NCBI GenBank assembly: GCA_018434685.1
Contig: JAHDOV010000003.1
Span: forward strand, 154,302-218,301
Direction of reading: 5' to 3'
Length of the DNA stretch: 64,000 nt
Origin: Deltaproteobacteria bacterium
Lineage (GTDB): Bacteria > Desulfobacterota > Desulfomonilia > UBA1062
Made by a program: the position numbers and the translations under genes. Shown in pieces: positions 489 through 10,352 of the stretch (within the stretch, counting starts at the first letter, position 1; the number at the start of each line of letters is the position of its first letter). The notes below the pieces were generated by a model that was not told the origin of the DNA, made no database searches, and was given only the letters and a program-made list of their open reading frames with translations.

Positions 489-880
489 GCCGGATCCCGG
501 CAACAATGAAGCATGCTGCCTGCGAACCGCAGTTCTCTTCGGGCTCAGGGCGAGTGAGAAAACCGGATCTTCCAGTAAGCGATGATCGCTCAGGGCAATA
601 ACCCCTCGATGCCCTGTTCTCTAGGAGCGGCAATTCATAGCAGAACCATACTGTGGGAGAAGCAGGATCTTCTTGGTTTCTTAACATCTTAACGATTTGA
701 GGACGTTGTCTTTTCCCCGAGGTTGGTGCCTCGTGCCCAGCGCCTTTAAGCACCCGCACCGATACTGCTCGCCTGTGCATGAATACCTCCCGCATATTAA
801 TTAAGAAGACGTGAACAGCTCTGTTCACGGGCATGCCTGACGGTTATCTTTCACAAAATACAACCTTGATAAAAAAATTC
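489..880. other. Intergenic stretch between sbcC and iclR
   Basis: About 390 bases without a convincing gene. A minus-strand frame opens after a GGGAGG Shine-Dalgarno-like sequence near 787, but its translation resembles no protein and it runs into sbcC, so I do not call it. The one clear structure is an interrupted palindrome, GTGAACAG-CT-CTGTTCAC, at 811-828. It is symmetric enough to be a protein-binding site or a small hairpin, but no T tract follows. Confidence 0.4.
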
Positions 881-940
881 TTGACACCGGAAGAACTTTT
901 AGGCATATGCATAATGTGCAATAAACAATCACAATGTGCA
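881..940 (+). promoter_or_regulatory. Putative iclR control region with direct repeats
   Basis: A consensus -35 hexamer TTGACA lies at 881-886, but no good -10 stands at standard spacing. Downstream the octamer AATGTGCA occurs at 913-920 and again at 933-940, exactly 20 bp apart, which puts both on the same face of the helix. The palindrome GCATATGC sits at 903-910. The iclR start codon follows at 953, so bound protein would block the promoter or start region. Autoregulation by the adjacent IclR protein is the simplest reading, but it is inferred. Confidence 0.45.
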
Positions 941-952
941 TAAGGGGATACG

Positions 953-1738
953 ATGCAGAGCATTAAATCCGTCGAGAAAGCCGTTGATATCATGTCCTGC
1001 TTCACGATCGAAACCCCCGCCCTCACCGTTACCGAGATCAGCTTTCTCACGGGCTTCAACCAGAGCACCGTCTCCCGCATCCTGGCAACCCTGGAAAAAA
1101 AGAAGTGCATGGAGCGCAGCACACCCGGGGGCAAGTACAAGCTCGGAGTGAAGTTCCACCAGTGGAAGAGCATCCTTTCGCAGGAGAAGAGCCTCGCCGA
1201 TCTGGCACGACCGGTCATGGAAAAACTGAGAGACCTCTGCGGAGAGGAAGTCTCCCTGTATGTCCTCAGTGAAGGAAACAGGATCTGTGTCGAGGCGGTC
1301 AAGAGCCGGTATGGTATTGCCAGGGTTACGCAGGTGGGAAAGACCCTCCCGCTCCATTGCGGTGCCTCCGGGAAGGTTCTCCTTGCCTACCTGCCTGAAA
1401 AAGAACGACGGGACATCATCTGCACGAAACCCCTGGAAAAGTACACCCCGAAGACCATCACCGATCCGGCTGAGCTCGAGGCCGATCTTGAGAAGATCCG
1501 TAGTGCCGGTTATGCCATCAGCCTCGAGGAGCGGGAGGCAGGGACGTATTCGGTGGTGGCCCCGGTCCTGACGAAAAAGGAAAAAATAATCGCGAGCCTT
1601 TCGATCTGCGGACCGCTGTTCCGTCTTTCGAATGACCAGCTCGAGAAAAATATAGCAGCCGCACAGGATGCAGCTGCGGAGATTTCCCAGGCACTGGGAA
1701 GATCTGAGAGGGAGGAAGGAAGGCCGCAATGGTCGTGA
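953..1738 (+). CDS. IclR-family transcriptional regulator
   Basis: A 261-residue protein of standard IclR length. Residues about 5-60 form the winged helix-turn-helix (recognition region GFNQSTVSRILATLEKK); residues about 80-250 form the GAF-like effector domain, with the family-typical HCGASGKVLLAYLP and the late SLEERE/AGTYSVVAPV region. IclR proteins usually control adjacent catabolic genes in response to a small carboxylate. Here the next genes, in the same direction, are a TRAP transporter and hydroxyacid-metabolising enzymes, so it is probably their regulator. ATG 953 is preceded by AAGGGG. The AATGTGCA repeats just upstream and the palindrome at 1781-1796 downstream are candidate binding sites. 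The effector cannot be read from the sequence. Confidence 0.9.
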   Translation: MQSIKSVEKAVDIMSCFTIETPALTVTEISFLTGFNQSTVSRILATLEKKKCMERSTPGGKYKLGVKFHQWKSILSQEKSLADLARPVMEKLRDLCGEEVSLYVLSEGNRICVEAVKSRYGIARVTQVGKTLPLHCGASGKVLLAYLPEKERRDIICTKPLEKYTPKTITDPAELEADLEKIRSAGYAISLEEREAGTYSVVAPVLTKKEKIIASLSICGPLFRLSNDQLEKNIAAAQDAAAEISQALGRSEREEGRPQWS

Positions 1739-1780
1739 ATCCCTGTGTCGGTTCAAGCAGGAAACTGCAGAGATTGCTGC

Positions 1781-1796
1781 TTCGGGAATTCCCGAA
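1781..1796. promoter_or_regulatory. Perfect 16-bp palindrome upstream of the TRAP operon
   Basis: TTCGGGAATTCCCGAA is fully symmetric and lies in the 175-bp gap between iclR and dctM, 118 bp before the dctM start. IclR-family proteins bind short palindromes of this size, so it is a plausible operator for the catabolic operon. No strong sigma-70 hexamers are obvious beside it. Confidence 0.4.
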
Positions 1797-1913
1797 GAAT
1801 TCTCGTCTCGATTCCACGAATGGTTCTGACGGAGGAGTCAAGGCAGCGGTCCTGCCCGCCATAAAAGATCTTCTGCAGCCAAAGACAACCCGGAACTTTA
1901 GGAGGAATGATTC

Positions 1914-3194
1914 ATGTCCATAGCCTTACTAGCCCTGATTGTCACTTTTGTCATCCTACTGCTGATCGGATTTCCGATTGCATTCAACCTCATCCTCAGC
2001 TCTATCGTCTATCTCCTGGTGGGAGACTACCCGCTGACCCTGGTCTCGCAGCGTATGTTCCAGGGCATGAACGGGTTTGCCCTTCTGGCTGTGCCCTTCT
2101 TCATCCTGACCGGGCAGCTCATGGTCAAGGGGAGTATCCTGAAGAACCTGACCGATTTCGTAAATGCCTTTGTGGGACATGTCAGGGGGGCCCTTGCCCT
2201 CGTGACGGTAGGCACGTGCCTGTTCATGGGCTCCATTGTGGGCCTGGCCGTGGCTTCAACCGCTTCCCTGGGATCCTTCCTCATCCCGATGATGAAAGAG
2301 GAGGGATACAAACCGGCCTTTGCATCGGGCGTCATGGCGAGTGCCTCGCTGCTGGGACCGATCATGCCGCCGAGCGTCCTGATGATCCTCTACTGCATCT
2401 CCGTTGGACGGACCTCCATTGCGGGTATCTTCCTGGCGAGCATCATCCCCGCAGTCCTGATCGCCCTGGCACAGATGGTGGTGATTTACTTCATCGCCAA
2501 AAGAGACAAACTGCCGAATCACGCCAAGGTTTCGTGGCCCGAGAAGTGGGTGCAGTTCAGGAAGGCTCTACCTGCGCTGTTCCTTCCCGTCATCATCTTA
2601 GGCGGCATCTTCGGTGGCATCTTTACGGTGACAGAGGCCTCCGCCGTGGCGGCAGCCTATGCCTTCATTCTCGTCGTGTTCTGGACCAAGGAAGTCACGT
2701 GGCGAGATTTCCCGGCCATCTTCATGGAAACGGCGCTGACCTCGGGTCTGGTCATCCTCCTGGCGGGAAGCGCAACGGTGACCGCCTGGGCCATCGCCAA
2801 CGAGCAGATCATCCAGGCGATCAGCGGCCCCCTGGCCGATGTCCCTCTGTGGGCCTTTCTCGCCATGCTCAACGTCCTGCTGCTGATCAACGGGATGTTC
2901 ATGGACGACTATGCCTCGGTCATCGTCCTGGGGCCGATCCTTGCACCCATAGCCTGGCACCTGGGGGTTGACCCTATCCAGATCGGCGTTATTATCTGCG
3001 TGAACCTGGTCATCGGCCTGGCCACGCCACCCTTTGGCATCACCCTGTTCGTCACGAGTCCCATGTCCGGGGTAACGGTGGAGGAAACCTTCAAGAGAGG
3101 CTGGCCCATGCTCGCGGCCAGCATGGTCGTGCTGTTGATGGTGACCTACTACCCGCCGCTCACGCTGTGGCTGCCTCGGATGTTCGGATATTAG
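1914..3194 (+). CDS. dctM: TRAP transporter large permease subunit (DctM)
   Basis: This 426-residue, very hydrophobic protein has the length and segment pattern of DctM, with about a dozen membrane helices in the inner membrane. Family landmarks are AVPFFILTGQLMVKG near residue 60 and STASLGSFLIPMMKEEGY near 115. DctM carries substrate and sodium across the membrane after delivery by the DctP protein. The start is set by AGGAGGA about 5 bases before ATG 1914. It comes first in the operon, ahead of dctP and dctQ, whereas the usual order is P-Q-M. The substrate class is a small organic acid; the neighbouring enzymes point to a 2-hydroxycarboxylate. Confidence 0.93.
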   Translation: MSIALLALIVTFVILLLIGFPIAFNLILSSIVYLLVGDYPLTLVSQRMFQGMNGFALLAVPFFILTGQLMVKGSILKNLTDFVNAFVGHVRGALALVTVGTCLFMGSIVGLAVASTASLGSFLIPMMKEEGYKPAFASGVMASASLLGPIMPPSVLMILYCISVGRTSIAGIFLASIIPAVLIALAQMVVIYFIAKRDKLPNHAKVSWPEKWVQFRKALPALFLPVIILGGIFGGIFTVTEASAVAAAYAFILVVFWTKEVTWRDFPAIFMETALTSGLVILLAGSATVTAWAIANEQIIQAISGPLADVPLWAFLAMLNVLLLINGMFMDDYASVIVLGPILAPIAWHLGVDPIQIGVIICVNLVIGLATPPFGITLFVTSPMSGVTVEETFKRGWPMLAASMVVLLMVTYYPPLTLWLPRMFGY

Positions 3195-3273
3195 GCGACG
3201 GGTTTGGGATAAGTAAATGGTTGGAAGACAAGATGTTAGGATTACAGCCAAAAAATTTAACGGAGGAAAGATT

Positions 3274-4299
3274 ATGAAGAAGAGTCAATGGATTACCATG
3301 GTGATCGCGGTGGTCGCGTGCTCGTTCCTGTTCTCGGGAATGGTCTTTGGCGCAACCAAGGCGAGGGTTTCGCTCTGCAATTCCCCAAGTCACCCCCAGT
3401 CTATCGGCATGCAGCTCTTCAAGCAGTATGTCGAGGAAAAAACCAAGGGGGCGATCACGGTCGGCCTGTATTACAACTCCCAGCTCGGTGGCGAGAGGGA
3501 ATCGGTGGAGCAGGTGAAGAATGGTTCGCTCGAGATGGCCACAGCCTCGGCCGGTCCTCTCACGACCTTCAACAACAAGTTCATGGTCCTGGACATTCCC
3601 TTTGCCTTTGACAGCTACGAGATCGCCTGGGGCGTGCTCGACGGTCCCATGGGCCAGAAGCTGCTCGATTCCAGCGAAGGCATCGGCCTCAAAGGGCTTG
3701 GCTACCTGGAAAACGGCTATCGCCACGTGACGAACAACGTCCGGCCCATCAACGGCCCCGATGACCTGGCGGGCATCAAGATCAGGACCATGGAAGCTCC
3801 AATGCACATGGAGAACTTCAAGAAGCTCGGCGCCAACCCGACCCCGGTCCCCTGGACCGAGCTCTACATGACCATGCAGCAGAAGGTTGTGGACGGCCAG
3901 GAAAACCCGCTTGCCAATATCTGGGAAGTGAAGATGTATGAGGTACAGAAGTACACATCACTGACCGGGCACATCTACGATCCGATGCCTCTGGTGGCAA
4001 ACCTTGCATGGTTCAATAAGCTTACACCGGAACAGCAGAGCATCATCAAGGAAGGCGCTGTCCTGGCACAGAACTACAGCCGGTATGTCAACAAGGCCCG
4101 TGAAGATGCAATCGTCGAGAAGCTGACCGAGAAAGGCATGCTGGTCAACGAGGTGTCAGCGGCCGGGAAAGAGAAGATGAGAGCCAAGTCACAGGCTGCC
4201 GTTGTCGCAAAGATCAAGGAAGGCACTGACAAGGCGTTCGTCGATGAGTGGCTCGCTGCCATCGACAAGATGAAAAAGGACGTGGATGCCGGATTTTAG
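3274..4299 (+). CDS. dctP: TRAP transporter periplasmic solute-binding protein (DctP)
   Basis: A 341-residue periplasmic receptor. The ATG at 3274 is chosen because GGAGGAAAG lies just ahead and the product then begins with a clean signal peptide (MKKSQWITMVIAVV, cleavage near VFGA-TKA). The DctP fold is supported by SLCNSPSHPQSIGMQLF near the N-terminus, and by the conserved arginine of GIKIRTMEAP, which in characterised DctP proteins forms a salt bridge to the substrate carboxylate, followed by PWTELYMTMQQKVVDGQENP. It binds the acid in the periplasm and hands it to DctQM. A 12-bp hairpin right after the stop may stabilise this part of the message, giving more receptor than permease. Confidence 0.93.
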   Translation: MKKSQWITMVIAVVACSFLFSGMVFGATKARVSLCNSPSHPQSIGMQLFKQYVEEKTKGAITVGLYYNSQLGGERESVEQVKNGSLEMATASAGPLTTFNNKFMVLDIPFAFDSYEIAWGVLDGPMGQKLLDSSEGIGLKGLGYLENGYRHVTNNVRPINGPDDLAGIKIRTMEAPMHMENFKKLGANPTPVPWTELYMTMQQKVVDGQENPLANIWEVKMYEVQKYTSLTGHIYDPMPLVANLAWFNKLTPEQQSIIKEGAVLAQNYSRYVNKAREDAIVEKLTEKGMLVNEVSAAGKEKMRAKSQAAVVAKIKEGTDKAFVDEWLAAIDKMKKDVDAGF

Positions 4300-4314
4300 C
4301 AGGTAAAGAGCAAT

Positions 4315-4345
4315 GGGTGGGCCTGCAGGCTTAGCAGGCCCGCCC
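4315..4345 (+). repeat. Intercistronic hairpin after dctP
   Basis: The arms at 4315-4326 and 4334-4345 pair over 12 bp with one G-U wobble around a 7-base loop. No T tract follows, so it does not look like an intrinsic terminator. Hairpins in this position after binding-protein genes often protect the upstream message from 3' decay. Confidence 0.6.
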
Positions 4346-4419
4346 TCTTGATTGAATTGCCGCGAATCGAGAAAGGCATAAGAAAGAGAACAAGAGGGGC
4401 GATTCAAAGGAGTGCAGAA

Positions 4420-4935
4420 ATGGATAAATCGAGGCTGGGAAAGATCTGTGATACCATCGAGAAGGCAACCCTCAACATCACGATGGCCTTCTGTGCGGTC
4501 ATGCTCGTGATCGCCTTGATGCACGTGACCCGGCGGTATGTCTTCAACAGCGCGCTGACCTGGTCGGAGGAATTCCTCCGATTCTCCATTGTCTGGTACG
4601 CGCTGCTGTCTGCGAGCATTCTGCACAAGAGGAACGGACATCTCGGGATCACCATATTCAGGGAGATGATGCCCGCCAAGCTGCGGAGATTTCTTGAACG
4701 GGTCGTGATCTACCTGGCAACGCTGACCGTAGCGGTGGTGACGGTGAGCGGGACCACCCTGGTCATCAGCACCTGGGGGCAGATTACGCCGGCCCTGGGG
4801 ATCTCCATGAGCCTTCCCTATGCGGCGATCCCGGTCAGCTTCTTCCTGATGACGATCTACGGGATCCTGCACATCATCCGGGACATCAAGGGCCTGCCGC
4901 CACTGAACTCGGAACATATGGAACTGAAGGAATAG
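4420..4935 (+). CDS. dctQ: TRAP transporter small permease subunit (DctQ)
   Basis: A 171-residue membrane protein with four predicted helices, typical of DctQ, the inner-membrane scaffold of DctM. The family motif near residues 46-62 (YVFNSALTWSEEFLRF) is clear. ATG 4420 follows AAAGGAG at 4407-4413; an in-frame ATG at 4348 would add a basic stretch that DctQ proteins lack and would fall right behind the hairpin, so the shorter form is preferred. The gene is 121 bp from dctP and 8 bp from the following larA-like gene, so the transporter is linked to the catabolic enzymes. Confidence 0.92.
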   Translation: MDKSRLGKICDTIEKATLNITMAFCAVMLVIALMHVTRRYVFNSALTWSEEFLRFSIVWYALLSASILHKRNGHLGITIFREMMPAKLRRFLERVVIYLATLTVAVVTVSGTTLVISTWGQITPALGISMSLPYAAIPVSFFLMTIYGILHIIRDIKGLPPLNSEHMELKE

Positions 4936-4943
4936 GGTGGACC

Positions 4944-6248
4944 ATGTATTCCCTTCATGAACAGGACTCCAGGATCGTCTACGAAGACCGGATCGAGGAT
5001 GTGGAGATATCGATCGACTCGGCGCGAAGCCTCGGGCTGATCGGCTTTACGGAACCGCCGGTGATCTCCTGGCCGGAGGATTTCCGCTGTGCCTTCGTAT
5101 CTCCGGCGGGCACCCCGCCGTTGCGTGATATCGCCAGGAATGCCGGGCGCGTCGCCGTCATCGTTTCCGACTCGACCCGGGGTGTTCCCACCGCGAAGGT
5201 CATGCCCATGATCATGGAGGAGCTTGCTGTGGCCGGTGTCCGGAAGGAGGATGTCACGGTGGTCATTGCCACCGGGGTTCACCGGGAGGCCACGGCCGAT
5301 GAGGTCATGGAGATCGTAGGAAGGGAAAACCTCGATGGCCTCAAGGTCATCAGCCATGACCCCTACGACAGGGACAAGCTCGTCTCTATTGGGGAGACCT
5401 CTTTCGGCACGCCCGTTGAAGTCTCCAGGACCGTCTACGAGGCGGACCTGAGAATCTCTGTGGGAAAAGTGGAACCGCATGAATTTGCGGGATTCTCAGG
5501 AGGAAGAAAGTCGGTTCTTCCCGGGATCGCCAGTGAAAGGACCATAGCGGTCAACCACCGGCCGGAGATGCTGATGTCGCCGGATGCCCGTCCGGGACAG
5601 ATCCTTGAAAATCCGATTCATCGGGACATGGTTGAGGCGGCCGGGATGCTGAAGATCCATTTCACCGTCAACCTGGTCCTGAACCAGGCAGGCGAGACGG
5701 TGGGAATATTCGCCGGCGATCTGATCGAGGCGCACCTGGCAGCGGTGGATTTCATGAGATCGTACTGCCAGATCACCCTGAAGAACCGGCCCGATATCAT
5801 TGTGACCACCCCGGGCAAGCCGCTGAACATCAACTTCTATCAGTCGGTCAAGCCCCTGATCGCCCTGGCTCCGGTCATGGCAGAAGGAGGAGTCCTGGTC
5901 CTCTACAGCTCCTGTCCGGACGGGCTCGGAACGGATGACATGCTGATCCCCTACAAGGGGGCAAAGGATATGGAAGAGGTCATCGAGCGTCTGAAATGCG
6001 ATTACCGGATACAGATGGATCATGCACTCCTGCTGGGGAAGATCCTTCTCAGGGGGATCCGTATCGTCGTGTCAGCGCCGAGCGTCAAGGCCCCGGTATT
6101 GAACGATATGTTCATGAATCCGGCGGGGTCCCCGCAAGAGGCGGTGGATATGGCCATGAACATGGTCGGGAACCAGAACCCCACAGTGCTGTTTTATCCC
6201 CAGGCGCAGCGGGCATTAACTGTCCTAGAAAATAAATTAAAACAATAA
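4944..6248 (+). CDS. LarA-family nickel-dependent 2-hydroxyacid racemase/epimerase
   Basis: A 434-residue protein with the residues of the LarA superfamily, whose members use the nickel pincer nucleotide cofactor to invert the C2 carbon of 2-hydroxy acids by hydride transfer. Visible are SDSTR at 75-79, His113 (ATGVHREAT), His138, HEFAGFSGGRK at 179-189 with His179 and Lys189, and Gln300/Lys303 (QSVKPL). These match the LarA residues that hold the cofactor (Lys184), ligate nickel, shuttle protons and bind the carboxylate. Lactate is only one substrate in this superfamily. The TRAP receptor, kinase and dehydrogenase around it suggest a longer or more oxidised 2-hydroxy acid. The cofactor genes larB, larC and larE are not in the window. 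Confidence 0.85.
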   Translation: MYSLHEQDSRIVYEDRIEDVEISIDSARSLGLIGFTEPPVISWPEDFRCAFVSPAGTPPLRDIARNAGRVAVIVSDSTRGVPTAKVMPMIMEELAVAGVRKEDVTVVIATGVHREATADEVMEIVGRENLDGLKVISHDPYDRDKLVSIGETSFGTPVEVSRTVYEADLRISVGKVEPHEFAGFSGGRKSVLPGIASERTIAVNHRPEMLMSPDARPGQILENPIHRDMVEAAGMLKIHFTVNLVLNQAGETVGIFAGDLIEAHLAAVDFMRSYCQITLKNRPDIIVTTPGKPLNINFYQSVKPLIALAPVMAEGGVLVLYSSCPDGLGTDDMLIPYKGAKDMEEVIERLKCDYRIQMDHALLLGKILLRGIRIVVSAPSVKAPVLNDMFMNPAGSPQEAVDMAMNMVGNQNPTVLFYPQAQRALTVLENKLKQ

Positions 6249-6278
6249 ATCAAAAGAGTTAAAAGGAGTAGGAATACC

Positions 6279-7553
6279 ATGAAAAAGTTCAAGATTACAG
6301 GCGTTACAGCCAGGGAGATACTTGACTGCCGGTGGAACCCAACAGTGCAGGTGGATGTCTGGGTAAATAACGAGATACTCGGCCGGGCCGACGTACCTGC
6401 GGGCCGTTCCACGGGCGCCAACGAGGCCAAGGAGATCCGTGACAAGGAACAGCGATATGACGGTATGGGCGTCCGCAAGGCGGTCAAGAATGTCAACGAG
6501 ATCCTCGGGCCTGCCGTCATCGGCATGGATGTAACGGACCAGCGCAAGGTCGATGAGAAGCTGCGCGCCATCGACGGGAGCAAAGACAAGTCAAAGCTCG
6601 GGGCGAATGCCGTCATCGGTGTTTCCCTTGCCACGGCGCGCGCCGCGTCCAACGCGGTCCAGCTGCCTCTGTACCGGTACGTCAACTGCAACGCGCATGT
6701 ACTGCCGGTTCCGCTTCTGAACCTGCTCAACGGCGGCAAACTGACATCCAACTACTTGGATTTCCAGGAATTCTGCATCTTCCCCATCGGTGCCGAGACC
6801 TTCAGGGAGTCTATGGCCATTGGCAATGCCGTCAACAACCAGCTCCGCGAGATCGTCATCAAGAATTACGGCAAGATAGCGGCCAACGTTGGTGATGAAG
6901 GCGGATTCGCCACACCGATTAAGAAGGTTCGCGAGGCTATGGACTGTCTCGTGCTGGCAGTGGAGCGTGCAGGGCATGCCGACAAGATCGTCTACGGTTT
7001 CGACTGCGCAGCCACGCACTTCTACGATGAAAAGACACAGAAATACACCCTCGAAGGCGAGGAGCTTTCGACCGGCGAACTGCTCGACTACTACAAGGAT
7101 CTCATCAAGACCTATCCGATCATGTCCATCGAGGATCCTTTTGCGGAAGACGATGTCGAAGGCTTTATCAGGGCGACCAAGGAACTGGGAATCCAGATCA
7201 TCGGCGACGACTTCTTCTGCACCAATCCCGATCGCATCCGTGAGCGGGCGCCGCTGGGTGCATCAAATGCCCTGTTGTGGAAATTCAACCAGATCGGGAC
7301 GCTCTCCGAGGCGCTCGATGCGGCTGAACTGTCCTATCGGCAGGGTTTCGGGATCATGGTTTCGGAACGTTCCGGAGAAACCGAGGACCCCATCATCGCC
7401 GATTTCGTCGTCGGCATCAACGCCGGTCAGATCAAGACAGGCGCAGGTGTCCGTGGCGAGAGGACCGCGAAGTACAATCGTCTCTTCCAGATCGAGGATG
7501 AGTTGGGATCACAGGCCCGCTATGCCGGCAGGGATTTCCGCTGCGCATTTTAG
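6279..7553 (+). CDS. Divergent enolase paralogue, probably not a glycolytic enolase
   Basis: 424 residues, collinear with bacterial enolase. The metal ligands (Asp242, Glu285, Asp310), acid/base residues (Glu164, Glu207, Lys335, Lys386) and Arg364/Ser365 are present. However, DSRGNPT has become DCRWNPT (16-22), loop PSGASTG is PAGRSTG (40-46), and both catalytic-site histidines are gone: yeast His159 corresponds to Leu155 (NGGKLTSN) and His373 to Glu363 (SERSGETED). In enolase these residues close on the phosphate and leaving hydroxyl of 2-phosphoglycerate. Carboxylate abstraction chemistry is probably kept on a different substrate. AAGGAG precedes ATG 6279, 30 bp after the racemase. A housekeeping enolase should exist elsewhere. 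An inactive paralogue is possible, but metal and base conservation argue against it. Confidence 0.85.
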   Translation: MKKFKITGVTAREILDCRWNPTVQVDVWVNNEILGRADVPAGRSTGANEAKEIRDKEQRYDGMGVRKAVKNVNEILGPAVIGMDVTDQRKVDEKLRAIDGSKDKSKLGANAVIGVSLATARAASNAVQLPLYRYVNCNAHVLPVPLLNLLNGGKLTSNYLDFQEFCIFPIGAETFRESMAIGNAVNNQLREIVIKNYGKIAANVGDEGGFATPIKKVREAMDCLVLAVERAGHADKIVYGFDCAATHFYDEKTQKYTLEGEELSTGELLDYYKDLIKTYPIMSIEDPFAEDDVEGFIRATKELGIQIIGDDFFCTNPDRIRERAPLGASNALLWKFNQIGTLSEALDAAELSYRQGFGIMVSERSGETEDPIIADFVVGINAGQIKTGAGVRGERTAKYNRLFQIEDELGSQARYAGRDFRCAF

Positions 7554-7584
7554 CACCTGTTTTATTGTGAACCAAAAGAACAAC

Positions 7585-7691
7585 GGGGACCGTGTACGCG
7601 GTTCCCGGTTATAAAGTACGGAAGTTTTTCATCCGTGCCCGGCAGGGCTGCGGCAGCATGTCTTCGCTGCCTGAAGCCCTGCTGGACACGG
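7585..7691 (+). repeat. Two intercistronic hairpins between enolase-like and kinase genes
   Basis: The first hairpin pairs 7585-7592 with 7599-7606 (8 bp with one G-U, 6-base loop). The second is longer: 7633-7637 with 7687-7691, 7643-7649 with 7675-7681, and 7652-7657 with 7666-7671. It ends nine bases before the AGGAGG of the next gene at 7700. There is no T tract, so these are more likely processing or translation-control structures than terminators. Confidence 0.5.
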
Positions 7692-7712
7692 AAAATCTCA
7701 GGAGGCGTTCCA

Positions 7713-9074
7713 ATGAGTTACATCAGAAACCTTGAAACACTTCTGGCGCACGGCAACGAGAGACTCCGCCGGATCGCCCTGGATATTGTGGATCATGCAC
7801 TGGCAAAGGCAGATCCATACAAGGCAGTCAAAGATCTTGTCCGTCTCGAGGAAGACATTCTTCAGGTAGGGGAGATCCGCCTTGATCTGAAAAAACACGG
7901 GAGGATTTTTCTCCTCGGCACCGGCAAGGCGACCTTTCCCATTGCGAAGGCCCTTGAAGAGATCCTGTCAGACCGGATCGAAGACGGTGTGATCATCTGT
8001 AAATACGGCCAGGAGGGAACCCTCTCTCACTCGAGGCTCTATTTTTCAAGCCACCCCATTCCCGACGAGGCAGGGTTCCAGGCAGCAGGGGAGGCCCTTG
8101 CCCTGGCCAGAAAGACCGCCCCCGGCGATATCGTGTTTGCCGGCATCACCGGCGGGAGCTCGGCGCTCATGCCTTATCCTGTCGAGGGTGTCACCCTGGA
8201 GGAAAAGAAACTGGTCAACAGGCTTCTTCTGACCTGCAGCGCCAATATCATCGAGATCAATGCAGTCCGCAAACACCTGAGCCGGATCAAGGGCGGATGG
8301 CTTGCCAAGGCCATTCACCCCGAAGCACACCTCATCAACCTGACGGTTTCCGATGTGATCGGTGATCCCCTCGACTACATCACCTGCCCCACGGTGCCCG
8401 ACACGTCGAGCTTCGACGATGCGCGCAGGACTCTGACCAAATACGAGCTCTGGGATAAGGTGCCGTCCTCGGTCAGCAGGTATCTCAAGGCAGGCGGAGA
8501 GTCCCAGGAGACACCCAAGGATCTCTCGGACCACAAGATCGACAACTTCATCATCGTTGCCGGGACCGCTGCCTGTGATGGCGCCGCGGAACGGGCACGG
8601 GAGCTGAATTTCGAGACCATGATCCTCTCCACCATGCTCGAGGGAGAAAGCAGGGAGCTCGGCGGCACGTTTGCGGCTGTAGCAAAGGAGATCCTGCTGA
8701 ACCAGAGACCGCTGAAGCCGCCGTGCGTAGTGATCGGCGGCGGTGAGACAACGGTGAAGATAACGGGCGATGGAGGGCAGGGAGGCCCGAACCAGGAATT
8801 TTCGCTCGGTGCGGCTCTCTGGATCGATCAGATCGGAGATGTCGTGATAGTCGGGCAGGATACGGATGGAACAGACGGCCCGACAGACTTTGCCGGGGGA
8901 ATCGTGGACAACTGGACAGCGGATCGGGCGAGGAAGCTCGGGGTAGACATTTACGCCGCTCTGGGCAGCCACGATGTGACCCCTGCTCTCGTGAAGCTGG
9001 AGGACGCGATCCTCACCGGAGCTACCGGGACCAATGTGAACGATCTGAAACTGATGCTGGTCATGCCCAGGTGA
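7713..9074 (+). CDS. Glycerate-2-kinase family (GK-II, MOFRL domain) enzyme
   Basis: 453 residues. AGGAGG at 7700-7705 sets ATG 7713. Landmarks of the family that makes 2-phosphoglycerate from D-glycerate are GTGKATFPIA (69-78), TGGSSALMPYP (146-156), NAVRKHLSRIKGG (183-195), SDVIGDP (213-219), GGETTVKITG (343-352) and DTDGTDGPTDFAGG (383-396). Two signatures differ: the usual SGPTVPD reads TCPTVPD (224-230) and GGRNQE reads GGPNQE (357-362), so an arginine and a Ser-Gly pair near the substrate are lost. With an altered enolase next door, the kinase may phosphorylate the C2 hydroxyl of a related D-2-hydroxy acid rather than glycerate. Older names for the family are TtuD or hydroxypyruvate reductase. 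Confidence 0.87.
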   Translation: MSYIRNLETLLAHGNERLRRIALDIVDHALAKADPYKAVKDLVRLEEDILQVGEIRLDLKKHGRIFLLGTGKATFPIAKALEEILSDRIEDGVIICKYGQEGTLSHSRLYFSSHPIPDEAGFQAAGEALALARKTAPGDIVFAGITGGSSALMPYPVEGVTLEEKKLVNRLLLTCSANIIEINAVRKHLSRIKGGWLAKAIHPEAHLINLTVSDVIGDPLDYITCPTVPDTSSFDDARRTLTKYELWDKVPSSVSRYLKAGGESQETPKDLSDHKIDNFIIVAGTAACDGAAERARELNFETMILSTMLEGESRELGGTFAAVAKEILLNQRPLKPPCVVIGGGETTVKITGDGGQGGPNQEFSLGAALWIDQIGDVVIVGQDTDGTDGPTDFAGGIVDNWTADRARKLGVDIYAALGSHDVTPALVKLEDAILTGATGTNVNDLKLMLVMPR

Positions 9075-9103
9075 TATCATAACTGATAGGAGGAGCTCTT
9101 ACG

Positions 9104-10093
9104 ATGAACGATCACGGGTTTGTTTCAGCCGCAACCGTCTTTGCCGACCGGTTTTACATGTCGGACACGGCATTGAGAGAGCTGTCCACTCTGGGCGGGT
9201 ATGCATGTGCCGGTGCCGGGAATGCCGAGGACCTGGCGGAGAAGATCGGGAGTTCTTCCGCCGTAAAGGTCATCGTTTCCGAGTATGTACCAATCAATGA
9301 TGTGGTGTTGAGCCATGCCCCGGAGTTACAGGGAGTGATTGCCTATGGGGCGGGTTATAACCATATCGATGTGAAAGCCATGAAACGTGGCGGCGTCAAG
9401 CCCTGCAACTGTCGAGGGGAGAACGCCGAGGCCGTTGCCGAGCTGGCCTTTGGTCTCATGCTCAGTCTGCTCAGGAGAATCCACAGGGCTGATGCATGGG
9501 TCAGGGCGGGTGAATGGGTGAAGGCAGGCATGGTTCTGCCGGAATGGGCCTCCGGCAGGGAATTATGGAAAAAAACCCTTGGGGTTATCGGTTTGGGGCA
9601 GATTGGTGCCAGGGTGGTGAGGATCGCAAAGGGATTCGGCATGGAAACAATCGCCTATGACCCCTGCATGAGTTCTGAGGTGTACAGCCGTCTGGGGGTG
9701 GAACCGGTGACCCTGGCAGGACTGCTGTCCCGCTCCGATGTGGTCACCATCCATGTTCCGCTCTCTTCGGAGACGGAAGGCATGCTCGATTCCCTGGCTT
9801 TGGCAGGCGCGAAGCCGGGGATGATCCTGGTAAACACGTCCCGGGGAAGGGTGATCGACGAGGAAGCCCTGGTCGCTGCACTTCAGACAGGACTGATCGA
9901 GGGCGCAGCACTGGATGTCTTCGCTGCCGAACCCCTGCCCGCCGGTCATCCCCTGACCGGGATGGACAATGTGATCCTTTCGCCCCATATGGGGGCCTTG
10001 AGCAGGGAAGCAGGCGATCGCCTCTCGGATTCCGTGGTGCGGCAGGTCAGGGCGATCCTTGAGGGGGGCTCCCCCGAAGGACTCATCAGATAA
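9104..10093 (+). CDS. D-isomer-specific 2-hydroxyacid dehydrogenase
   Basis: 329 residues of the phosphoglycerate-dehydrogenase-like superfamily, NAD(H) dependent and cytosolic. The nucleotide fold is marked by GVIGLGQIGARVV near residue 160 with an acidic residue downstream (AYDPCM), and the catalytic set is Arg (VNTSRGRVID), Glu (DVFAAEPLP) and His (SPHMGA). It interconverts a D-2-hydroxy acid and its 2-oxo acid, for example glycerate and hydroxypyruvate. GGAGGAG precedes ATG 9104, 29 bp after the kinase stop. As last gene of the cluster it would oxidise the D-form made by the racemase, or reduce the oxo acid. No serine-pathway regulatory domain is present. Confidence 0.88.
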   Translation: MNDHGFVSAATVFADRFYMSDTALRELSTLGGYACAGAGNAEDLAEKIGSSSAVKVIVSEYVPINDVVLSHAPELQGVIAYGAGYNHIDVKAMKRGGVKPCNCRGENAEAVAELAFGLMLSLLRRIHRADAWVRAGEWVKAGMVLPEWASGRELWKKTLGVIGLGQIGARVVRIAKGFGMETIAYDPCMSSEVYSRLGVEPVTLAGLLSRSDVVTIHVPLSSETEGMLDSLALAGAKPGMILVNTSRGRVIDEEALVAALQTGLIEGAALDVFAAEPLPAGHPLTGMDNVILSPHMGALSREAGDRLSDSVVRQVRAILEGGSPEGLIR

Positions 10094-10220
10094 GGACTGG
10101 CGAAAGAGGAACACCGCCGTGCCCGCGCCCATAAGAGAGCGGGGCGCAGCACGGACACGGCGATCAGAGAACAATAACCGCACTGCTCGTGCTTAGCGTC
10201 ACATACACCCTGATCGTGAC

Positions 10221-10250
10221 GTCCTGGTGCCACCTGGCAGGCACCAGGAC
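10221..10250 (+). terminator. Strong hairpin closing the catabolic operon
   Basis: The arms 10221-10231 (GTCCTGGTGCC) and 10240-10250 (GGCACCAGGAC) pair perfectly over 11 bp around an 8-base loop, about 130 bp after the dehydrogenase stop and 100 bp before rmuC. No run of T follows, so it would be a weak or factor-assisted terminator. Confidence 0.5.
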
Positions 10251-10352
10251 GGAGCGATTCGCTGATGTACTGCGGCAATTCCTTGTTATTCCGTGCTGAT
10301 TTCCCTTTCGGACTCACAGAGGATATGCCATATTCCCCCTGGAGGTTCTGTT

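What the first reader, a model, noticed from the sequence alone, without database searches (positions are those of the whole stretch)
6279..7553. Enolase with both active-site histidines replaced but metal and acid/base residues intact
Yeast His159 and His373 correspond to Leu155 and Glu363; the mobile loop SGAST reads AGRST (Arg43) and DSRGN reads DCRWN. All three metal ligands and Glu164/Glu207/Lys335/Lys386 remain. The new Arg43 and Glu363 may form a salt bridge where the phosphate normally sits. This pattern indicates a specialised paralogue rather than decay.
Basis: partly seen in the sequence, partly recalled or inferred. Interest (0 to 1): 0.72.

Follow-up and report, generated by a model that had tools for sequence, protein, structure and literature searches.

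The report
Enolase look-alike with a private kinase
This gene belongs to a widespread but apparently undescribed family of altered enolases that nearly always travel with their own equally altered glycerate-type kinase, so it probably performs an enolase-like step on a compound other than the usual glycolytic one, although databases label it ordinary enolase.

Summary
The 424-aa enolase homologue at 6279-7553 has Leu at yeast position 159, Glu at 373 and Arg at 38; metal ligands, acid/base residues and most phosphate contacts are kept. The genome also holds an ordinary enolase, split over two contig ends.

It is not an isolated oddity. Glu373 enolases form one clade (100/97) found in deltaproteobacterial, Chloroflexota and Actinomycetota genomes and on Paraburkholderia, Salmonella and haloarchaeal plasmids. 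Seventeen of 18 Glu373 loci, but 0 of 62 His373 loci, lie beside a DUF4147/MOFRL kinase. These kinases are themselves a separate clade (100/100) with altered motifs. Selection is purifying, and nearly every carrier genome checked also has ordinary enolase.

Best reading: a parallel kinase-plus-enolase pair for a 2-hydroxy acid other than glycerate, in an operon with a TRAP importer, a LarA racemase homologue and a 2-hydroxyacid dehydrogenase. The kinase phosphorylates C2; the enolase removes the C2 proton and expels the C3 group. The substrate is not identified; an amine-substituted lactate is my leading guess.

The parts
953..1738 (+). IclR-family transcriptional regulator
   Evidence: Pfam IclR_C 140.5 bits; conserved first gene in Syntrophaceae copies of the operon
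1914..3194 (+). DctM, large TRAP transporter permease subunit
   Evidence: Pfam/NCBIfam; 82-92% identical in orthologous operons
3274..4299 (+). DctP, TRAP solute-binding protein (start inferred; longest ORF from 3217)
   Evidence: Pfam DctP 294 bits; nearest solved homologues include 4P47, 4PDH, 4P9K, 4XEQ; TRAP binding proteins of this kind are reported bound to pantoate or erythronate, 4P47 being open (PMC11668362)
4348..4935 (+). DctQ, small TRAP permease subunit (start uncertain)
   Evidence: Pfam DctQ
4944..6248 (+). LarA-family nickel-pincer 2-hydroxyacid racemase homologue; best NCBIfam matches are malate and lactate racemases but all below cut-off
   Evidence: genome encodes the cofactor-synthesis protein LarC
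6279..7553 (+). Enolase paralogue of the Glu373 family (the finding)
7713..9074 (+). DUF4147/MOFRL (glycerate 2-kinase-like) kinase of the enolase-linked clade (start inferred; longest ORF from 7635)
   Evidence: Pfam DUF4147 233 bits and MOFRL 102 bits; separate clade and motif changes
9104..10093 (+). D-2-hydroxyacid dehydrogenase
   Evidence: Pfam 2-Hacid_dh_C 205.5 bits; conserved last gene of Syntrophaceae operons

Best explanation
The protein is the second enzyme of a two-enzyme module that runs parallel to the ordinary glycerate 2-kinase / enolase pair but on a different 2-hydroxy acid. Proposed steps in this genome: the TRAP transporter imports a small 2-hydroxy acid; the LarA homologue interconverts its C2 stereoisomers; the DUF4147/MOFRL kinase phosphorylates the C2 hydroxyl; the Glu373 enolase binds the carboxylate on its metals, removes the C2 proton with Lys335 and expels the C3 substituent, giving phosphoenolpyruvate or a substituted analogue that pyruvate kinase can take further; the 2-hydroxyacid dehydrogenase links the hydroxy acid to its 2-keto acid. 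Shown here: the residue changes, the clade, the kinase linkage and the kinase's own divergence. Inferred: that the kinase acts at C2, that the reaction is a C2/C3 elimination, and that 2-phosphoglycerate is not the main substrate. The identity of the C3 group is open.
For: Glu373 enolases are one clade, 100/97 support, spread over bacteria and an archaeon. 17 of 18 Glu373 loci have the kinase within the flank (the 18th contig ends at the gene), against 0 of 62 His373 loci. Enolase-linked kinases are one clade, 100/100, apart from 27 other family members and two solved ones, with SGGG -> TGGS and a one-residue deletion in the A-S-G-P-T motif. Enolase and kinase distances correlate (r 0.77 over ten reduced lineages, Mantel p 0.0002). 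The same genome has a second, ordinary kinase and an ordinary enolase; 11 of 12 further carrier genomes also show an ordinary-type enolase, ten of them read through position 373 as His. The differently arranged operon of the Ser38 subgroup still carries enolase, kinase, TRAP genes and LarA. In G309, where the two genes lie apart, the enolase sits by a LarA-like gene and a matching TGGS-type kinase sits by a regulator and TRAP genes. The Salmonella copy includes a pyruvate kinase. Purifying selection.
Against: No substrate or activity is shown. Catalytic residues for 2-phosphoglycerate dehydration are otherwise intact, so it could still be an enolase in the strict sense. The pyruvate kinase of the Salmonella cluster looks ordinary, compatible with plain phosphoenolpyruvate. 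Gene sets around the pair differ between lineages, which may mean several substrates. Characterised kinases of this class are reported as glycerate kinases (PMC2063504). The linkage and distance statistics do not fully correct for shared ancestry.
Confidence: 0.62

Rival explanations
1. It is a true 2-phosphoglycerate enolase isozyme dedicated to a self-contained glycerate route: LarA racemises L- to D-glycerate, the kinase makes 2-phosphoglycerate, this enolase makes phosphoenolpyruvate. The altered residues are tolerated or tune the enzyme.
For: Kinase family, dehydrogenase family and, in Salmonella, a pyruvate kinase in one cluster all fit a glycerate route; some LarA homologues racemise glycerate (PMC11770544); a kinase of this class is reported clustered with pyruvate kinase in Pseudomonas (PMC2063504).
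Against: The genome already has an ordinary enolase and an ordinary kinase. S13, A38 and H373 are invariant in 86 other enolases but all changed here, while the kinase changed in parallel.
Confidence: 0.24
2. The C3 leaving group is an amine: the substrate is 3-amino-2-hydroxypropanoate (isoserine) or an N-substituted form, and the enolase releases ammonia or an amine from 2-phosphoisoserine to give phosphoenolpyruvate. This is a special case of the best explanation, so its probability is contained in it.
For: Nitrogen enzymes recur beside the pair in unrelated lineages: D-amino acid dehydrogenase-like protein, RidA and hydroxypyruvate reductase (Paraburkholderia); D-amino acid dehydrogenase-like protein (Thermoleophilia); polyamine-type ABC importer, FAD amine-oxidase-like protein and M20 deacylase (Solirubrobacterales); amidinotransferase downstream and carbamoyltransferase and carbamate kinase upstream of the G309 kinase, arginase-family protein near its enolase. 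Glu replaces His at the position near the leaving group (my knowledge of enolase structures), and the operon LarA has Glu-Phe after its catalytic His.
Against: No single nitrogen gene is shared by all clusters; several are common genes that could be neighbours by chance; the Syntrophaceae operon itself has none. TRAP binding proteins usually carry organic anions.
Confidence: 0.2
3. The substrate is (phospho)sulfolactate and sulfite is expelled.
For: TRAP import and a racemase would suit sulfolactate; Arg43 could bind a sulfonate (inference).
Against: No dissimilatory sulfite reductase passes its cut-off in this genome; no sulfite-handling gene was noticed in any cluster examined; Glu replaces His at 373; the operon LarA lacks the Lys of the malate racemase loop (PMC7583248).
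Confidence: 0.04
4. Non-catalytic or decaying enolase copy.
For: Loss of two histidines that are otherwise invariant.
Against: Metal and acid/base residues kept, purifying selection, ancient clade, strict kinase linkage.
Confidence: 0.03

Closest known systems
Enolase (phosphopyruvate hydratase, EC 4.2.1.11; TIGR01060)
   Same: Whole fold, metal ligands, Lys/Glu acid-base residues, Arg374/Ser375/Lys396; best solved match is Methanocaldococcus jannaschii enolase 2PA6, 53%
   Different: H373E, A38R, S13C, E/S251H, I344W and often H159L; linked to its own kinase; genomes also hold an ordinary enolase
Class II glycerate kinase / DUF4147-MOFRL family (solved 1X3L, 2B8N)
   Same: Same family by both Pfam domains and by match to the two solved structures
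   Different: Operon kinases form their own clade with TGGS in place of SGGG and a one-residue deletion at the SGPT motif
LarA nickel-pincer 2-hydroxyacid racemases (lactate, malate, gluconate types)
   Same: Catalytic and cofactor residues conserved by alignment; LarC present in the genome
   Different: Below every NCBIfam equivalog cut-off; side-chain loop reads Glu-Phe instead of Phe-Phe (lactate) or Tyr-Lys (malate) (PMC7583248)
Methylaspartate ammonia-lyase and other non-enolase subgroups of the enolase superfamily
   Same: Proton abstraction next to a metal-bound carboxylate followed by beta-elimination (established knowledge)
   Different: Different subgroup; those substrates are not phosphorylated. 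The enolase subgroup itself is presumed monofunctional (PMC7246345)

Membership tests
Enolase superfamily | N-terminal cap plus TIM barrel, three acidic metal ligands | tested here: met
   Pfam Enolase_N/Enolase_C; D246/E295/D320 equivalents kept; model pLDDT 92 with enolases as best structural matches
Enolase superfamily | Catalytic lysine on the barrel (yeast K345) | tested here: met
   Lys335 kept in the window protein and in all family members aligned
Enolase, EC 4.2.1.11 | Score over the curated eno model | tested here: met
   TIGR01060 515.7 bits against cut-off 300; shows only that the model does not separate this family
Enolase, EC 4.2.1.11 | His at yeast position 373 and Ala38 in the closing loop | tested here: not met
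   Glu363 and Arg43; both positions invariant in 86 other enolases
Enolase, EC 4.2.1.11 | Dehydrates 2-phosphoglycerate | not testable with these tools
   Needs an assay
Class II glycerate kinase (partner) | DUF4147 and MOFRL domains | tested here: met
Class II glycerate kinase (partner) | SGGGSAL and A-SGPT motifs of other family members | tested here: not met
   TGGSSAL and T[C/D]PT in the enolase-linked clade
Lactate or malate racemase (LarA) | Catalytic/cofactor residues D72, R75, H108, H174, K184, H200, K298 | tested here: met
   Read from alignment with solved LarA and Mar2
Lactate or malate racemase (LarA) | Score over an equivalog cut-off | tested here: not met
   Best 355.3 bits against cut-off 500

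The most novel reading that the evidence does not exclude
The Glu373 family is the first branch of the enolase subgroup with a reaction other than 2-phosphoglycerate dehydration: with its co-evolved kinase it carries out a phosphorylation-driven beta-elimination of a C3-substituted lactate, possibly releasing ammonia or an amine from 2-phosphoisoserine to make phosphoenolpyruvate.
Probability: 0.5. Interest if true: 0.78.

Novelty: new variant of a known kind. Interest (0 to 1): 0.62.

Why it matters
Enolase is treated as functionally uniform, and the standard model annotates this protein as phosphopyruvate hydratase. A second specificity inside it, with a matched kinase, would mean a catabolic route that is probably missing from current pathway maps, present from anaerobic sediment bacteria to plasmids of Salmonella and Paraburkholderia. 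It would also give a natural experiment on which enolase residues set substrate rather than chemistry.

Tried and rejected
Pseudogene reading: rejected by intact frame, low dN/dS and clade. Local recent duplication: rejected, the clade is deep and not sister to the ordinary Syntrophaceae enolases. Sulfolactate: made unlikely by the missing dsrA and lack of sulfite genes. Malate or tartrate: weakened by the LarA loop. An early notebook entry of mine that LarA Trp358 is Ala here is withdrawn: alignments place Asp or His there. Phosphate replaced by a salt bridge: not favoured because phosphate contacts remain. Literature searches for enolase with DUF4147, with glycerate 2-kinase and TRAP, or with glycerate kinase, TRAP and LarA returned nothing in the held library. 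Rfam search of 700-10300 gave no match.

Full report
The observation. The frame 6279-7553 (+) is open and encodes a full-length enolase homologue. Against the best solved match, M. jannaschii enolase 2PA6, it aligns end to end at about 53% identity. In yeast numbering it carries A38R, H159L, A160T, H373E, S13C and G15W, and keeps S39, E168, E211, D246, E295, D320, K345, R374, S375 and K396.

A second enolase in the genome. G000 has two further enolase pieces, at C1:2-355 (-) and C48:3-914 (+), both at contig ends. Together they read as one ordinary enolase with SGAST, NGGTHADN and SHRSGETED. Among 12 further genomes reached through loci of the family, 11 also carry an ordinary-type enolase, of which ten were read as His373 and one is broken near that position; the twelfth is a 2.0 Mb draft.

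A family, not a singleton. Orthologues at 83-91% identity occur in nine other genomes, labelled Syntrophaceae, Thermodesulfobacteriota, Deltaproteobacteria or Desulfuromonadaceae, with Arg38, Leu159 and Glu373 in all; eight keep the operon order TRAP-LarA-enolase-kinase as far as their contigs allow, and L048 keeps enolase-kinase-dehydrogenase. More distant members at about 50-69% occur in a groundwater proteobacterium, Anaerolineae, Solirubrobacterales, Thermoleophilia, another family of the window's phylum (G309), a Paraburkholderia plasmid, a Salmonella plasmid and Haladaptatus plasmids. In a maximum-likelihood tree of 47 enolases all 19 Glu373 rows form one group, 100/97, with long branches inside it. 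Compared with 86 His373 enolases, the changes are H373E and E/S251H in all subgroups, A38R and S13C in all but the Ser38 subgroup, and W/F at 344 in all but the archaeal one. Position 159 is Leu in six subgroups and His in three, and is therefore not a defining trait. Close orthologues show dN 0.05-0.11 against dS 0.7-1.3 where dS is not saturated.

The kinase. In the genome contigs set, 17 of 18 Glu373 loci have a DUF4147/MOFRL kinase in the flank, and the remaining contig ends at the enolase; none of 62 His373 loci has one. The kinases linked to these enolases form a single clade, 100/100, separated from 27 other kinases of the window's class and from the solved P. horikoshii and T. maritima proteins. 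They share motif changes: SGGGS to TGGSS, and A-SGPT to T[C/D]PT with one residue lost. The window's genome has a second kinase of the ordinary type at C55. Enolase and kinase distances correlate, r 0.97 overall and 0.77 in ten reduced lineages with Mantel p 0.0002. Where the two genes are apart, in G309, a matching TGGS-type kinase still exists, beside a GntR regulator and TRAP genes, while the enolase follows a LarA-like gene. Both steps of the glycerate-to-phosphoenolpyruvate route thus exist twice in the same genome, and both members of the second pair have diverged together. This is the main argument for a substrate other than glycerate and 2-phosphoglycerate.

The rest of the operon. IclR regulator, DctM, DctP, DctQ, LarA homologue, enolase, kinase, D-2-hydroxyacid dehydrogenase, all on the + strand. 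The LarA homologue keeps the catalytic and cofactor residues, and the genome encodes LarC. Two residues after its catalytic His are Glu-Phe, where lactate racemase has Phe-Phe and malate racemase Tyr-Lys (PMC7583248). The nearest solved DctP homologues belong to a group reported with pantoate or erythronate, partly co-purified. A divergent subgroup (L041, L042) with Ser38, His159 and Asp at 211 has the same parts in another order: enolase, kinase, DctM, DctP, DctQ, LarA, GntR. Solirubrobacterales have GntR and a polyamine-type ABC importer; Salmonella has an MFS transporter, a D-Ala-D-Ala ligase homologue, GntR, a pyruvate kinase and a GNAT protein; Paraburkholderia has an ABC importer, a D-amino acid dehydrogenase-like protein, RidA and a hydroxypyruvate reductase.

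Mechanism proposed. Kinase at the C2 hydroxyl (inferred from its family), enolase-type removal of the C2 proton by Lys335 and loss of the C3 group (inferred from conserved residues), product phosphoenolpyruvate or an analogue (inferred; the Salmonella pyruvate kinase fits). Position 38 lies in the closing loop and 373 near the leaving group (my knowledge of enolase structures, not tested here), so A38R and H373E would plausibly reshape the C3 pocket. Nitrogen-metabolism genes recur near the pair in several lineages, which is why I rank an amine-substituted lactate such as isoserine first among candidates, at about 0.2; no single neighbour is universal, and chance adjacency is possible.

What remains open. 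No activity was or could be measured. A strict 2-phosphoglycerate isozyme remains possible (0.24). The statement that the enolase subgroup is presumed monofunctional comes from PMC7246345; that this family is undescribed rests on a limited open-access library and on curated models that do not separate it.

Noticed in passing
L134:7001-8260, L135:7001-8218 (Pararhizobium and Azospirillum plasmids); L199 in G425: A third enolase variant with Asp at yeast 168 and Ala at 373, 37-40% identical to the window protein, forming its own 100/100 branch in the two plasmid copies; no DUF4147 kinase beside these two.
   Followed up: partly
L197 (G434:C490:7360-8607): A further divergent enolase homologue with Thr38, Tyr159, Ser211, His251, Gly373 and Ala375, in the genome of L048 that also holds the Glu373 enolase.
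   Followed up: no
Plasmid collection, e.g. hits H81-H105: Several hundred Escherichia and Klebsiella plasmids carry a roughly 400-bp stretch matching the C-terminal third of enolase, mostly without an annotated gene.
   Followed up: no
G017: C6:188261-189523 and C5:199294-200556: One genome of the window's family has two ordinary-type enolases in addition to the Glu373 copy.
   Followed up: partly
window 7580-7620: A short inverted repeat (ggGACCGtgtacgCGGTTCcc) lies in the 159-base gap between the enolase and kinase genes, possibly a processing or attenuation site; seen by eye only.
   Followed up: no
L173:8439-19707 (G309): The matching kinase of G309 is followed by TRAP genes, an arginine:glycine amidinotransferase homologue and a second TRAP set.
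   Followed up: partly
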